NCBI GenBank assembly: GCA_024689505.1
Contig: JAILDJ010000272.1
Location: 17,049-81,048, forward strand
Origin: Clostridiales bacterium
Lineage (GTDB): Bacteria > Bacillota > Clostridia > Lachnospirales > Bianqueaceae
Reading direction: 5' to 3'
Length of the DNA: 64,000 nt
The position numbers and the translations under genes are program-made. Positions 18,344-61,654 of this stretch are shown one piece after another (the first letter of the stretch is position 1; each line of letters starts with the position of its first letter). Under the pieces are notes generated by a model. The model had not been told where the DNA came from. It worked only from the letters and a program-made list of their open reading frames with translations, and did not search any database.

Positions 18344-18405
18344 CATAAAGATTGTAAGATATCGTTTGTTTTGTCGTCATTAAGGGTGAAAAGGAGGTGG
18401 GTGCA

Positions 18406-18966
18406 TTGGAAGATGAGCAGATCGTGCAGCTGTATTGGGACAGGAACGAGTCCGCGATCGAGGAATCATCGAAGAAATATGGGTCCTACGTGCGTCAGAT
18501 CGCCTGCCGGATCCTGAACGACATCGCGGATGCGGAGGAATGTGTAAATGATACCTGGCTCCGGGCTTGGAACGCTATACCTCCGCAGAGGCCCACTGTT
18601 TTAGGCGCTTTTTTCGGAAAGATCACCAGAAATCTGTCTTTTGACATGTACAGAAAAGCGCGCCGGGGTAAAAGAGGCGGCACTGAGATCGATCTGGTCC
18701 TGGATGAACTGGGCGAGTGCGTCTCCGGGCAGGAGGATACGGAGACACGGTGGGAGTCAAAAGAACTGGTGCGGGAGATCAACAGATTCTTGAATTCTCT
18801 GCCGCGGACGAAGCGAGACATGTTCGTTCTTCGTTACTGGTATGCGGACAGCATCCATGCGATCGCGGATCGATATCAGACCACCGAGAACAATGTATCT
18901 GTGACCTTAAGCCGCCTGAGAAAAAAACTGCGCACACATCTGACAGAAAGAGGGTATGATATATGA
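18406..18966 (+). CDS. ECF-type sigma-70 family sigma factor
   Basis: YGSYVRQIACRILNDIADAEECVNDTWLRAWNAIPPQRP (region 2) and LPRTKRDMFVLRYWYADSIHAIADRYQTTENNVSVTLSRLRKKL (region 4). GGAGG favours TTG 18406 over GTG 18397. Confidence 0.9.
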   Translation: MEDEQIVQLYWDRNESAIEESSKKYGSYVRQIACRILNDIADAEECVNDTWLRAWNAIPPQRPTVLGAFFGKITRNLSFDMYRKARRGKRGGTEIDLVLDELGECVSGQEDTETRWESKELVREINRFLNSLPRTKRDMFVLRYWYADSIHAIADRYQTTENNVSVTLSRLRKKLRTHLTERGYDI

Positions 18967-20408
18967 AAAAAGAAGACCTGTTCGATGCAATGGGTGAGAT
19001 CAACGAAGAATTCATTCGGAATGCCCGGAAAGAGCGAGTGCCCAGGAGAGTTTTGTGGATGCGATGTGCGGCGGCCGCGACGTGCGCTCTGGCAGTATTG
19101 GTGGTTTTTCTCAGATCACCTTTTTTTCGGAACAAGTTCAATAAAGAAGGGGAGTACACACAAATGGAAGGTGTTTTCGCGGTCAATGCCGCGTATCCCG
19201 AGCCGGTCGCTCAGCATATGAGTGCCAGTGAATTCTATGAGAACGATGCTCATTGGGAATGGTGGACTTCCTATAGAAAGTTCACAGACAGATCCTCGAA
19301 ACTGCAGGATGGTCTGCAGGGATACTATTCCAATATCATGGGGCAGATCCTGACTGCGGAGGACGAGAACACGGTCTGTTCTCCCATCAATATCTATATC
19401 GCATTTGCCATGTTGGCAGAGGTTTCAGACGGTTCGACCCGTCAACAGATCCTGGATATGCTGGGGTGCTCTGATATCGATAAGCTGCGTGATCAGGCCA
19501 ATGCGTTGTGGCAGAGCAATTATGTGGACACACCGGCTCTGAAAAGTCTGCTTGCCAATTCGATCTGGCTGGACCAATCTGTCGCGTATCATTCCGAGAC
19601 GCTGCAGCGCCTGGCAGATCAGTATTTTGCATCATCTTTCAGCGGAATACCGGGCTCTCAGGAGATGGATGAAGCACTGCGGCATTGGACGGATGAGAAT
19701 ACCGGCAATCTGTTGAGTGAATATACGAAAGATATGAAGATCGATCCAAATACGGTTTTGGAGATCCTGTCAACGATCTACTACAAAGCGACCTGGATGG
19801 ATACGTTCCTTGAGAAGAATACGACACAGGAAACATTTCATGGGACTGTAGGCGACACCACCGTCGATATGATGCATCGGTCGGATATGATGGGCGTATA
19901 TCGGACGGACACGTATATCGCATTGAGCCTCAATCTGACAGACAGTGGGAATATGACGTTCTATCTGCCAGAAGAGGGTGTAGATGTGAATGATCTGGCG
20001 GCAGATCCAAGTGTTCTCAATGCAGCCAGATACGGAGAGGATGAGAACAGGTCCTATCCGATGGTCCACCTGTCAGTGCCCAAATTCCGAGTGACAGCCA
20101 AAACGGACCTGATCGAGACGATCCGGTCGCTGGGAGTTACAGATGCATTAGACCCGGCAGTATCTGATTTTACACCGCTTACAACAGAAAAAGATGAATT
20201 ATTTGTGAGTAAGGCAGAGCATGCGGCATTGATCGAGATCGATGAGGAAGGTGTTACCGGAGCCGCCTATACTGAATTGGCCATCGCCGAAGGTGCAGCA
20301 CTTCCGGAAGAAGAGATCGATTTTGTCCTGGATCGTCCCTTTATGTTCGTCGTGACAGGGATGGACGGATCCATTCTGTTTTCCGGGATCGTAAGAAATA
20401 TACAGTAA
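18963..20408 (+). CDS. Membrane-anchored serpin with a short cytoplasmic N-terminus, coupled to the upstream sigma gene
   Basis: NTVCSPINIYIAFAMLAEVSDGSTRQQILDMLG; LSTIYYKATWMDTFLEKNTTQETFHG; EEGVTGAAYTELAIAEGAALPEEEIDFVLDRPFMFVV (hinge and reactive-centre loop region). TM helix after about 32 aa; ATGA overlap with the sigma gene. Confidence 0.92.
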   Translation: MKKEDLFDAMGEINEEFIRNARKERVPRRVLWMRCAAAATCALAVLVVFLRSPFFRNKFNKEGEYTQMEGVFAVNAAYPEPVAQHMSASEFYENDAHWEWWTSYRKFTDRSSKLQDGLQGYYSNIMGQILTAEDENTVCSPINIYIAFAMLAEVSDGSTRQQILDMLGCSDIDKLRDQANALWQSNYVDTPALKSLLANSIWLDQSVAYHSETLQRLADQYFASSFSGIPGSQEMDEALRHWTDENTGNLLSEYTKDMKIDPNTVLEILSTIYYKATWMDTFLEKNTTQETFHGTVGDTTVDMMHRSDMMGVYRTDTYIALSLNLTDSGNMTFYLPEEGVDVNDLAADPSVLNAARYGEDENRSYPMVHLSVPKFRVTAKTDLIETIRSLGVTDALDPAVSDFTPLTTEKDELFVSKAEHAALIEIDEEGVTGAAYTELAIAEGAALPEEEIDFVLDRPFMFVVTGMDGSILFSGIVRNIQ

Positions 20409-20412
20409 AAAG

Positions 20413-20456
20413 AAGGCACTTGGACTTTCGTGCTATGCACTCCGTCCTCGTGCCTT
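20413..20456 (-). repeat. GA-element copy 1 (structured hairpin)
   Basis: Minus strand: AAGGCAC GA GGAC GGA GTGC ATA GCAC GAA AGTCC AA GTGCCTT. Confidence 0.7.
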
Positions 20457-20461
20457 TTATC

Positions 20462-20520
20462 ATGCCATATGATAAAACAAGTCCTTCTGCAAGCAGAGGA
20501 CTTGTTTTATCGCATGGCAT
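20462..20520. repeat. 59-nt long inverted repeat, copy 1
   Basis: ATGCCAT-at-GATAAAACAAGTCC-ttctgcaagcaga-GGACTTGTTTTATC-gc-ATGGCAT; 14-bp perfect core stem. Confidence 0.85.
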
Positions 20521-20544
20521 AGGATTGATTTGGTGCATAAACCC

Positions 20545-20577
20545 GGAGGCCTTCGCGCGGCTGCGCTTTCGGCCTCC
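20545..20577 (-). repeat. GAAA/GAA-element hairpin, paired with GA-element copy 2
   Basis: Minus strand: GGAGGCC GAAA GCGC AGCC GCGC GAA GGCCTCC. Confidence 0.7.
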
Positions 20578-20580
20578 TGA

Positions 20581-20623
20581 AAGCACTCGGACTTTCGTAC
20601 TTCCGTACTTCGTCCTCGTGCTT
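20581..20623 (-). repeat. GA-element copy 2
   Basis: Minus strand: AAGCAC GA GGAC GAA GTAC GGAA GTAC GAA AGTCC GA GTGCTT. Confidence 0.75.
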
Positions 20624-20626
20624 TTT

Positions 20627-20697
20627 GCGTTCTTAATGTCGTATAAAAGCGCGAGTATACAAGTACACTCGAGCTTCTTTATATGACTTTAGAACGC
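20627..20697. repeat. About 70-nt imperfect hairpin
   Basis: GCGTTCT..GTCGTATAAAAGCGCGAGTATA..ACACTCGAGCTTCTTTATATGAC..AGAACGC. Confidence 0.7.
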
Positions 20698-20723
20698 TCT
20701 TAAAAGTGTTGCAATAAGTCCCC

Positions 20724-20751
20724 GCGTGGCTGCACTGCGTTTCCGCCACGC
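20724..20751 (-). repeat. GAAA/GAA-element hairpin (degenerate), paired with GA-element copy 3
   Basis: Minus strand: GCGTGGC GGAAA CGCAGTGCA GCCACGC. Confidence 0.55.
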
Positions 20752-20752
20752 T

Positions 20753-20800
20753 AAAAGGCACTCGGATTTTCGTACTTCGTACTTCATCCTCGTGCCTTTT
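20753..20800 (-). repeat. GA-element copy 3
   Basis: Minus strand: AAAAGGCAC GA GGAT GAA GTAC GAA GTAC GAA AATCC GA GTGCCTTTT. Confidence 0.75.
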
Positions 20801-20803
20801 GTC

Positions 20804-20862
20804 ATGCCATATGCTAAAACAAGTCCTTCTGTAAGCAGAGGACTTGTTTTATCGCATGGCAT
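20804..20862. repeat. 59-nt long inverted repeat, copy 2, abutting the 3' end of pruA
   Basis: ATGCCATATGCTAAAACAAGTCC...GGACTTGTTTTATCGCATGGCAT; near-identical to 20462-20520. Confidence 0.85.
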
Positions 20863-20867
20863 GGGAC

Positions 20868-22493
20868 TTATTTGGTCATGTATGGATACGTGATCGCCGT
20901 GGTGGGGACGAGGGTCTCTTTGATGTTGCGGGTGCTGGTCCAGCGGTAGAGGTTCAGCATGGAGCCGGCTTTGTCGTTGGTGCCGGAAGCGCGTCCGCCG
21001 CCAAAAGGCTGCTGGCCGACTACAGCACCGGTCGGTTTGTCGTTGATGTAGAAGTTGCCGGCTGCAGAGGAGAGTTTCTGCTCCATATAGATGATAGCGT
21101 TGCGGTCGTTCGCGAAGATCGCGCCGGTCAAAGCGTATGGAGAAGCGGTGTTGCAGGCTTCCAGTGCCTCATCGAGCTGATCATCCGGGTAGACGTACAC
21201 ACTCAGGACCGGTCCGAAAATCTCTTCGACCATGGTCTTCTCGTACGGAGTCTTGCACTCGATGACAGTCGGATATACAAAGTAGCCCTTGGAATCGTCC
21301 AGAGAACCGCAAAGGATCTCGCTGTTCTCGGATGCTGCCGCATAGTCCACATAGGACTTGATGTTGTCGAAGGAAGCCTTGTCGATCACGGCGCCGAGCA
21401 TGGTGGTATAGTCCGTAACATCACCGACCTTCAGGGCTTTAGCTTCTTCGATCAGACGCGGTTTGACCTGCCCCCATAAGCTTTCCGGAATGAAAGCGCG
21501 GGAAGCGGCAGAGCACTTCTGGCCTTGGTACTCGAAAGCACCGCGGACCAATGCGGCGACGAGGGGCTCGACAGCGGCGGTCGGATGCGCAAAGACGAAG
21601 TCCTTACCTCCGGTCTCGCCGACCAGACGCGGATAGGATTCATAATCGAAGATGGTCTCGCCGACCTGCTTCCAGATCGTCTTGAAGACTTGCGTGGAAC
21701 CGGTAAAGTGTACGCCAGCCAGCATCTTGTCGGACAGAACATACTTGCTGACATCGGATCCGCGGCTGGGCACAAAGTTGATGACGCCGGCGGGCAGACC
21801 GGCTTCCATCAGGATCTGCAGGAAGTAGTAGTTAGAGAGAACAGCGGTGGAAGAGGGCTTCCACAAAGCTACATTGCCCATGATCGCGGGTGCGGTCGGC
21901 AGGTTGCCGCCGATGGAGGTAAAGTTGAACGGAGTGATGGCCATGATGAAACCATCGAGCGGACGGTACTCAAGACGATCCCAGATGCCTTTGGAACTGT
22001 TCGGCTGCTGGGCAAAGATCTCCTGCGCGAAGTATGTGTTGAAACGAAGGAAGTCGGCCAGCTCGCAGGCAGAATCGATCTCGGCCTGGAAAGCGGTCTT
22101 GCTCTGCCCCAGCATGGTCGCGGCGTTGATCTTGGCACGATAGGGACCGGTCAATAACTCAGCAGCTTTGATGAAGATGCTGGCGCGGTGTTCCCAGGGC
22201 ATGAACTCCCAGGCTTTTTTGGCTTCCAGTGCGGCAGCGATTGCCTCCTTCAGCTCTTTCTCTCCAGCCATATGATAGCGAGCGATCACATGCTGATGGT
22301 CGTGCGGCATGACGATATCTTTCATGACGCCGGTGCGGACTTCTTTGCCGCCGATGATCAGCGGGATCTCGATGATCTGTGCCGACTGTTTTTCCAGTTC
22401 TTTTGTTAATGCCAGTCGTTCCGGAGATCCGGGCATATATCCGAGGACCGGCTCGTTGGCCGGCATGGCAAGTTTATAGGTGCCGTTGTTCAT
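20868..22493 (-). CDS. pruA: L-glutamate gamma-semialdehyde (1-pyrroline-5-carboxylate) dehydrogenase
   Basis: ALDH family: RLVGETGGKDFVFAHPTA; FEYQGQKCSAASRAFIP (catalytic Cys); QQPFGGGRASGTNDKAG. Confidence 0.93.
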   Translation of the reverse strand: MNNGTYKLAMPANEPVLGYMPGSPERLALTKELEKQSAQIIEIPLIIGGKEVRTGVMKDIVMPHDHQHVIARYHMAGEKELKEAIAAALEAKKAWEFMPWEHRASIFIKAAELLTGPYRAKINAATMLGQSKTAFQAEIDSACELADFLRFNTYFAQEIFAQQPNSSKGIWDRLEYRPLDGFIMAITPFNFTSIGGNLPTAPAIMGNVALWKPSSTAVLSNYYFLQILMEAGLPAGVINFVPSRGSDVSKYVLSDKMLAGVHFTGSTQVFKTIWKQVGETIFDYESYPRLVGETGGKDFVFAHPTAAVEPLVAALVRGAFEYQGQKCSAASRAFIPESLWGQVKPRLIEEAKALKVGDVTDYTTMLGAVIDKASFDNIKSYVDYAAASENSEILCGSLDDSKGYFVYPTVIECKTPYEKTMVEEIFGPVLSVYVYPDDQLDEALEACNTASPYALTGAIFANDRNAIIYMEQKLSSAAGNFYINDKPTGAVVGQQPFGGGRASGTNDKAGSMLNLYRWTSTRNIKETLVPTTAITYPYMTK

Positions 22494-60433: not shown

Positions 60434-61489
60434 ATGGGAGTATTTGAGACGACGGTCGATCGGATCCGGGAAACGCGGACGATCACGTATGATCAATTGG
60501 TATATATTTTTGAGCATATCGATGAGGAGAAGGAGCAGTACCTCTATGCGCAGGCACGAGCGGTCGCAGAACCCATTTTTCATAAAGCAGTCTATCTGCG
60601 CGGCTTGATCGAGTTCACCAATATCTGCAAGAATGACTGCTATTACTGCGGGATCCGCTGCAGCAACCCCAATGCGCAACGCTATCGGCTGACGGAAGAA
60701 CAGATCCTGAACTGCTGCGATATGGGAGCGAAGCTGGGATTCAAAACTTTTGTACTGCAGGGCGGAGAGGACCCGTATTATACGGACGATAGGGTCTGCG
60801 ACATCATACGCAAGATCAAAGAGCGGTATCCGGATCGTGCGGTAACACTCTCGATCGGCGAAAAGGAGTATGACAGTTACAAGCGGTATTATGAGGCTGG
60901 CGCGGACCGGTATCTCTTGCGGCATGAAACTGCCAACGAAGAACACTATGCCATGCTGCATCCGGCAAGCCTTTCCGGCGCACATCGCAAGCAGTGCCTC
61001 CGGGATCTGAAAGAGATCGGGTATCAGGTAGGCTGCGGCATCATGGTGGGTACGCCGCACCAGACACTGCAGCATATCTATGAGGACTTTGTCTTCATGG
61101 AGGAACTTCAGCCGCATATGATCGGCATCGGCCCCTTTATTCCGCATAAAGATACACCGTTCCGAGATGAACCCATGGGCAGCGTGCAGCAGACACTGTG
61201 GCTTCTGGCCCTGCTGCGCCTGGTCTTCCCGAAGGTCCTGCTGCCGGCAACGACTGCGCTGGGTACCGCGGATCCTATGGGCAGGGAGAAGGGGATCCTG
61301 GCCGGTGCCAATGTTATGATGCCCAATCTGTCTCCCGTGGACGTGCGGGAAAAGTATATGCTGTACGATGGTAAGATCTGCACTGGAGATGAGGCAGCGG
61401 AATGCAACCGTTGTATGCGTATGCGCGTCGAAAAGATCGGCTACCATGTAGAAGACAGCCGAGGCGATCACCCGGACTATGTACAATAA
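60434..61489 (+). CDS. hydE: [FeFe] hydrogenase H-cluster radical SAM maturase HydE
   Basis: LRGLIEFTNICKNDCYYCGIRCSN (CxxxCxxC); TFVLQGGEDPYYTD; HKDTPFRDEPMGSVQQTL. Confidence 0.92.
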   Translation: MGVFETTVDRIRETRTITYDQLVYIFEHIDEEKEQYLYAQARAVAEPIFHKAVYLRGLIEFTNICKNDCYYCGIRCSNPNAQRYRLTEEQILNCCDMGAKLGFKTFVLQGGEDPYYTDDRVCDIIRKIKERYPDRAVTLSIGEKEYDSYKRYYEAGADRYLLRHETANEEHYAMLHPASLSGAHRKQCLRDLKEIGYQVGCGIMVGTPHQTLQHIYEDFVFMEELQPHMIGIGPFIPHKDTPFRDEPMGSVQQTLWLLALLRLVFPKVLLPATTALGTADPMGREKGILAGANVMMPNLSPVDVREKYMLYDGKICTGDEAAECNRCMRMRVEKIGYHVEDSRGDHPDYVQ

Positions 61490-61545
61490 GCGCCTGAAAG
61501 TCAAGCAAAGCTTGCTTGCGAGGCTTTGCTTGACCTTAAAGGCGC
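61490..61545 (+). repeat. Hairpin abutting the hydE stop (outer stem, GAAA loop, 12-bp inner stem)
   Basis: GCGCCT GAAA GTCAAGCAAAGC-ttgcttgcgag-GCTTTGCTTGAC CTTAA AGGCGC. Confidence 0.8.
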
Positions 61546-61546
61546 A

Positions 61547-61594
61547 AAACACACGAGGATGAAGCTGCAAAGCAGCGGGAGTCCGAGTGTGTTT
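61547..61594 (+). repeat. GA-element copy 4
   Basis: AAACACAC GA GGAT GAA GCTGC AAA GCAGC GGG AGTCC GA GTGTGTTT; same conserved loops as copies 1-3 with different stem sequence. Confidence 0.78.
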
Positions 61595-61595
61595 A

Positions 61596-61629
61596 GGGAG
61601 CTGAAAGCACCGAAGGTGCGAAGGCTCCC
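61596..61629 (+). repeat. GAAA/GAA-element hairpin paired with GA-element copy 4
   Basis: GGGAGC T GAAA GCACC GAA GGTGC GAAG GCTCCC. Confidence 0.75.
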
Positions 61630-61654
61630 GTATTGGAGTAAACCCGTTTTGAAG

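What the first reader, a model, noticed from the sequence alone, without database searches (positions are those of the whole stretch)
20413..20862. Repeated structured element with conserved purine internal loops and covarying stems (GA-element family)
Three hairpins here and one at 61547-61594 share [stem1]-GA-GGAY-GRA-[stem2]-loop-[stem2']-GRR-ARTCC-RA-[stem1']. Stem1 changes compensatorily (GGCAC/GTGCC, AGCAC/GTGCT, ACACAC/GTGTGT), as does stem2 (GTGC/GCAC, GTAC/GTAC, GCTGC/GCAGC) and the middle stem (GGAC/GTCC, GGAT/ATCC), while the GA/GA and GAA-type loops are kept. CGAG facing CGAG would form tandem sheared G-A pairs. Compensatory change with invariant internal loops is a hallmark of selected RNA structure, not a plain terminator.
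Basis: seen in the sequence. Interest (0 to 1): 0.78.

Follow-up and report, generated by a model that had tools for sequence, protein, structure and literature searches.

The report
Stop-codon-anchored copies of Clostridiales-1 RNA
The hairpins belong to an RNA family already in the databases (Clostridiales-1, function unknown), and comparison of genomes indicates that it is not an ordinary small-RNA gene but a spreading structured element that sits, in the reading direction, exactly on the stop codon of many genes.

Summary
The window holds three tandem copies on the minus strand behind pruA and one on the plus strand behind hydE; the genome holds 18. Covariation is overwhelming (21 of 21 P3/P4 pairs show double changes). 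Three properties appear undescribed. (1) Of 129 array-leading copies in 18 genomes, 54 begin within -7 to +14 nt of the stop codon of the same-strand upstream gene; the next 22-nt bin holds 4. The closing helix P1 contains all or part of that stop codon in 45 of 54. (2) Anchored genes include rplL, rplA, rpmI, ssb, tsf, groEL and pheS; several copies lie inside operons, so it is not simply a terminator. (3) In Butyrivibrio the same body is the core of a 190-bp MITE with 18-bp TIRs and 5-6-bp TSDs. Best reading: a mobile-derived 3'UTR/intercistronic RNA module working like REP/ERIC elements on mRNA fate, possibly sensing the terminating ribosome. The mechanism is inferred; no expression data were available.

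The parts
20715..20870 (-). RF01699 copy A, first of the array behind pruA.
   Evidence: cmscan 86.6 bits; helices from the fold of 20713-20873 minus, z -11.35
20868..20870 (-). TAA stop codon of pruA; it lies inside the 5' strand of P1 of copy A
   Evidence: ORF 20868-22493 minus, TIGR01236; P1 AATAAGTCCC/GGGACTTATT
20536..20702 (-). RF01699 copy B, second of the array
   Evidence: cmscan 74.9 bits; orthologous copy in G011
20371..20527 (-). RF01699 copy C, third of the array, truncated (P4 lost); its P3 hairpin abuts the stop of the convergent 481-aa gene
   Evidence: cmscan 47.9 bits, cut-off 48; sequence
20868..22493 (-). pruA, L-glutamate gamma-semialdehyde dehydrogenase, 541 aa; gene upstream of the array
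61482..61637 (+).
   Evidence: cmscan 82.8 bits; fold z -9.5
61487..61489 (+). TAA stop codon of hydE; first two bases lie in P1 (CAATA 61484-61488 with TATTG 61631-61635)
   Evidence: sequence; HydE TIGR03956
61661..61691 (+). Ordinary intrinsic terminator-like hairpin downstream of copy D, i.e. the element is not needed as terminator here
   Evidence: consensus scan only

Best explanation
The hairpins are the P3 arms of four copies of Clostridiales-1 RNA (RF01699). The family is a structured element that spreads in genomes and is retained in the sense direction on the stop codons of genes, where it becomes the start of the 3'UTR or the spacer between two genes of an operon. Once transcribed it would fold into a tight, closed four-helix junction whose closing helix P1 takes in the stop codon. 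Most likely it works like REP/ERIC elements: a stable block on the mRNA directly behind the reading frame that sets the fate of the upstream message (barrier to 3'-5' exonucleases, or a conditional processing site). Because P1 overlaps the stop codon it should close only when no ribosome is terminating there. Shown: identity, structure, covariation, stop anchoring, sense bias, MITE forms, empty sites. Inferred: transcription of the element, effect on decay, ribosome dependence. Confidence by layer: identity 0.97; stop-anchored sense element 0.9; mobile ancestry 0.85; REP/ERIC-like action on mRNA 0.45 (the figure given below).
For: Identity. Covariation. Anchoring: 54 of 91 same-strand 5' neighbours end at -7..+14 of the element (mode -2), next 22-nt bin 4; mirror case (opposite-strand stop at the 3' end) 2. 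P1 >= 7 bp in 43 of 54 anchored copies against about 8% of swapped-partner controls; stop codon fully in P1 in 29, partly in 16. Same body as MITE is rarely anchored (3 of 33; Fisher p = 0.0004). Intra-operon copies rpmI-rplT, ssb-rpsR, pheS-pheT, trpG-trpD, ATP synthase c-b. Empty sites at rplL, rplA and pruA. G-U 44 against A-C 15: one strand is constrained. MITE form with TIR and TSD.
Against: No RNA data: neither transcription nor any effect on mRNA is shown. 9 of 54 anchored copies have no stop nucleotide in P1 and a minority of copies lie behind terminators, tRNA genes or a promoter instead. C-GNA-G triloops and apex inversions would fit a DNA hairpin as well. Patchy presence at orthologous genes shows that the function is dispensable.
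Confidence: 0.45

Rival explanations
1. It is a transcription terminator / 3'-end module that has replaced the ordinary terminator behind genes.
For: Relatives have an ordinary terminator behind rplL and pruA where this genome has elements; P2 of some copies has an A-run/T-run stem and the scan finds terminator-like hairpins in the pruA array.
Against: T-run of 4 or more after P4/P1 in only 5 of 30 anchored copies; hydE has a separate terminator 24 nt further on; copies lie between co-directional operon genes such as rpmI-rplT and pheS-pheT with 5-54 nt to the next start.
Confidence: 0.2
2. It is a purely selfish MITE-type DNA element; sense anchoring reflects where old copies are tolerated, and the pairing is kept at DNA level (transposase recognition or template switching between palindrome arms).
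For: TIR and TSD, up to about 50 copies, near-identical copies; P2 apex differs or is inverted between near-identical copies; P1 can copy up to 12 nt of gene-specific sense codons in inverted form; GNA triloops.
Against: Tolerance does not explain nucleotide-precise anchoring in one orientation, nor G-U exceeding A-C three to one; anchored copies lack the right TIR and still keep their fold; in-place compensatory change.
Confidence: 0.25
3. It is an independently transcribed trans-acting small RNA, as Rfam's type 'Gene; sRNA' says.
For: Rfam type; the G000 C179 copy starts directly behind a TATAAT, and several copies follow a terminator.
Against: No promoter-like site before the pruA copies and none on the plus strand before the hydE copy; anchoring on the stop leaves a promoter only inside the reading frame; many divergent copies per genome without a conserved single-stranded seed.
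Confidence: 0.1

Closest known systems
Clostridiales-1 RNA, Rfam RF01699 (Weinberg et al. 2010, PMC2864571)
   Same: Same family by covariance model, all four copies.
   Different: The paper's table rates it RNA 'y', cis-regulatory 'n' and Rfam files it as an sRNA gene; mobility and stop-codon anchoring are not mentioned in the text searched.
ERIC elements (127-bp enterobacterial MITEs; review PMC2229807)
   Same: Structured MITE co-transcribed with neighbours; orientation-dependent effect on upstream mRNA with a proposed role of the ribosome.
   Different: Unrelated sequence and host group; ERIC is one long hairpin; here a four-helix junction closed on the stop codon. No functional data here.
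REP / palindromic units
   Same: Repeated structured element behind genes or between operon genes, known substrate of RNase R/PNPase (PMC12320835); from my own knowledge (not checked here), REPs very close to stop codons were reported to affect translation.
   Different: REPs are 20-40 bp single palindromes (PMC3733652); these are ~160 nt with conserved internal purine loops.
bcr1-bcr3 repeats of Bacillus cereus
   Same: MITE-like repeats found in UTRs and operon spacers; bcr3 correlates with mRNA decay (PMC3446304).
   Different: Other sequence and host; no stop-codon anchoring described there.

Membership tests
RF01699 Clostridiales-1 | Score above the family's gathering cut-off (48 bits) over the whole model | tested here: met
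   86.6, 74.9, 82.8 bits, model positions 1-166; third array copy 47.9, truncated
RF01699 Clostridiales-1 | P1-P4 architecture supported by covariation | tested here: met
   P3/P4; P1; folds:
RF01699 Clostridiales-1 | Rfam type: independent sRNA gene | tested here: inconclusive
   Most leading copies are anchored on stop codons without own promoter, a minority may be independent; no RNA data
MITE | Terminal inverted repeats and target-site duplication, many near-identical non-coding copies | tested here: met
   For the G276/G245 (Butyrivibrio) forms: 190 bp, 18-bp TIR, TSD 5-6 bp
MITE | Same features in the window copies themselves | tested here: not met
   Copies of this genus lack the right TIR and a recognisable TSD
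MITE | Autonomous partner with matching ends | tested here: inconclusive
   None between TIR pairs or among PF01609 transposases; other families not searched
REP/ERIC-type mRNA element | Located in transcribed 3'UTR or operon spacer, sense-oriented | tested here: met
   Position only; transcription not tested
REP/ERIC-type mRNA element | Changes mRNA decay or translation | not testable with these tools
   Needs RNA experiments
Intrinsic terminator | GC-rich hairpin followed at once by a U-run | tested here: not met
   5 of 30 anchored copies have a T-run of 4 or more there

The most novel reading that the evidence does not exclude
A domesticated mobile RNA that builds its closing helix on the stop codon of its host gene and so reports on terminating ribosomes: while ribosomes terminate P1 is open, when they do not the junction closes and changes the fate of the message. 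Separate occurrences behind the same gene in distant lineages (rplL in two families) would make it a recurrent gene-end module of Lachnospirales.
Probability: 0.2. Interest if true: 0.8.

Novelty: new variant of a known kind. Interest (0 to 1): 0.55.

Why it matters
RF01699 has been filed as a small-RNA gene of unknown function since 2010. Seeing it as a mobile-derived element anchored on stop codons gives a first testable hypothesis for it, would correct its type in annotation, and offers a natural case of mobile DNA turned into 3'UTRs in rumen and gut bacteria. It also warns that strong covariation in a repeat family does not by itself mean a small-RNA gene.

Tried and rejected
(1) 'New family': rejected by cmscan. 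(2) DNA-only pairing inferred from low G-U: rejected after the control; G-U is 2.6% here against 4.0% in tRNA stems of the same loci and exceeds A-C. (3) Plain terminator as the general function: rejected. (4) Element inserted inside the last codons and supplying a new stop: not general, since rplL, rplA and pruA keep their C-termini (within a residue or so) with and without it, and the reverse orientation would supply a stop too. (5) Partner transposase between TIR pairs or in PF01609: none. (6) Phage link: no match of the MITE form in the phage collection. (8) Literature: RF01699 appears in three open papers, none on its function.

Full report
CHECK. The genome has 18 copies, several in tandem. 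Folding gives P1 (10 bp, containing the pruA stop), P2, P3 and P4 with almost no unpaired linker, z -11.35; the hydE copy z -9.5.

COVARIATION. A first alignment of 40 copies gave 22 of 22 P3/P4 pairs with double changes. A covariance model of P3-P4 found 111 copies in 82 loci: 94.0% of cells paired, 21 of 21 pairs with changes on both sides, 614 double-change cells against 160.8 +/- 12.8 shuffled, score 0.685 against 0.200; sliding the partners by 1-3 columns drops pairing to 26-46%. The shuffles ignore relatedness and the alignment is fitted to the model, but orthologous copies at one locus also show compensatory change (pruA). In 86 non-redundant copies there are 1550 Watson-Crick pairs, 44 G-U and 15 A-C; tRNA stems from the same loci have 4.0% G-U. 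So one strand carries the constraint. P3 and P4 loops are mostly C-GNA-G triloops, P2 mostly ends in G-CUUG-C.

DISTRIBUTION. 10 of 19 genomes of the family and 57 of 295 of the order have it, with 1 to about 50 copies. The MITE form is 99.5% identical on plasmid pNP243 of Butyrivibrio fibrisolvens D1, which suggests that G276/G245 are Butyrivibrio or near it and that the order is Lachnospirales.

MOBILE FORM. G276 has about 30 near-identical 155-nt copies. They are the core of a 190-bp element with left end TGACGTAAGGGTCAAAAG and right end (reverse complement) TGAGGTAGGTGTCAAAAG, flanked by AT-rich direct repeats of 5-6 bp in nearly all right-end-complete copies of G276 and G245. Ends of the same kind are seen in G119 and G003. 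No transposase with these ends was found. These young copies lie between genes in both orientations.

STOP-CODON ANCHORING. Gene contexts in 18 genomes give 129 array-leading copies. With a same-strand gene on the 5' side (91 cases), 54 begin at -7..+14 of its stop, mode -2, which means that the stop codon is the first triplet of the element; the following 22-nt bins hold 4, 4, 5 and 3. The mirror case, the stop of an opposite-strand gene at the 3' end, falls in that bin twice. MITE copies abut a stop in 3 of 33 (Fisher p = 0.0004). P1 of the 54 anchored copies has a mean of 8.2 bp and is at least 7 bp in 43, against about 8% of swapped-partner controls; it contains the whole stop codon in 29, part of it in 16, none in 9, and can run into sense codons (15 bp at G284:C220). 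The covariance model knows nothing of genes, so the coincidence is not built in. Gene calls used a simple codon-usage score and I sampled mainly the best-scoring copies, so percentages are approximate.

WHICH GENES. Anchored genes include rplL (in two families), rplA, rpmI, ssb, tsf, groEL, gapA, ychF, pheS (in two genomes), argS, cysK, ATP synthase subunit c, trpG/pabA, mfd, pruA, hydE and several lipoproteins that look like ABC solute-binding proteins. The share of translation and other highly expressed genes is striking, but I computed no formal background. Several copies are inside operons: element to next start is 46 nt for rpmI-rplT, 128 for ssb-rpsR, 5 and 54 for pheS-pheT, 34 for trpG-trpD, 79 for ATP synthase c-b.

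EMPTY SITES. Behind rplL, G010, G001, G013 and G006 have an ordinary terminator where this genome has two elements; behind rplA, this genome has 23 nt to the rplJ promoter where G010 has the element between stop and promoter; behind pruA, G010 has ordinary 3' sequence where this genome and G011 have elements. The proteins are not truncated.

MECHANISM. Best supported is a sense, stop-anchored mRNA module of the REP/ERIC kind. Terminator function is not general: a T-run follows P4/P1 in 5 of 30, hydE has its own terminator further on, and operon copies must be read through. An independent small RNA is possible for a minority, such as the copy behind a TATAAT in C179. Mobile DNA without function, with pairing kept at DNA level, is the main rival: for it speak the GNA triloops, apex inversions and gene-specific inverted copying in P1; against it the strict sense anchoring and the G-U/A-C asymmetry. 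Transcription, decay effects and ribosome dependence are inference, modelled on ERIC (PMC2229807), REP (PMC12320835) and bcr repeats (PMC3446304).

NOVELTY. The sequence family is already known. In the open papers searched I found nothing on its mobility or its place on stop codons; subscription papers and the supplement of the 2010 paper were not available. I therefore call it a new variant of a known kind (small mobile structured repeat), with the family name unchanged.

Noticed in passing
G003 copies (L087, L089, L090, L091, L094) and the G009 C356 tandem pair (L062): The two apex bases of hairpin P2 differ between otherwise near-identical copies (CTCG, CGTG, CCAG, CAGG, CGGG) and are inverted between the two tandem copies (CTGG / CCAG), as if the apex were rewritten or flipped during duplication.
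   Followed up: no
G000 C123 (L050), G009 C12 (L060), G000 C26 (L048), G276 L103, L154-L156: Full copies are often followed downstream by 5'-truncated partial copies (P3-P4 or P2 parts only), with the 3' end kept.
   Followed up: partly
G000 C46, C59, C123, C26:14668; G010 C15; G011 C155, C228; G245 L132-L134: A second position class: the element begins directly behind the T-run of an intrinsic terminator or behind the 3' end of a tRNA-like sequence instead of a stop codon.
   Followed up: no
G245 L163, L169, L173, L178 (G276), L182: Solo short palindromes made only of the two MITE ends facing each other, about 39 bp.
   Followed up: no
G276 L135-L138: Four MITE copies of 248 bp carry the same extra ~58-nt structured insert in P3.
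   Followed up: no
P3 and P4 loops, alignment A3: Terminal loops are mostly C-GNA-G triloops (36 of 75 and 36 of 62), GNRA only 4; this loop type is known as especially stable in DNA (own knowledge), so a single-stranded DNA role is worth a thought.
   Followed up: partly
window 18397-20408: A sigma-factor-like ORF followed by a 481-aa ORF that reads like a membrane-anchored serpin, convergent with pruA; its stop lies about 5 nt before the last hairpin of the array, which could serve both strands as a terminator.
   Followed up: no
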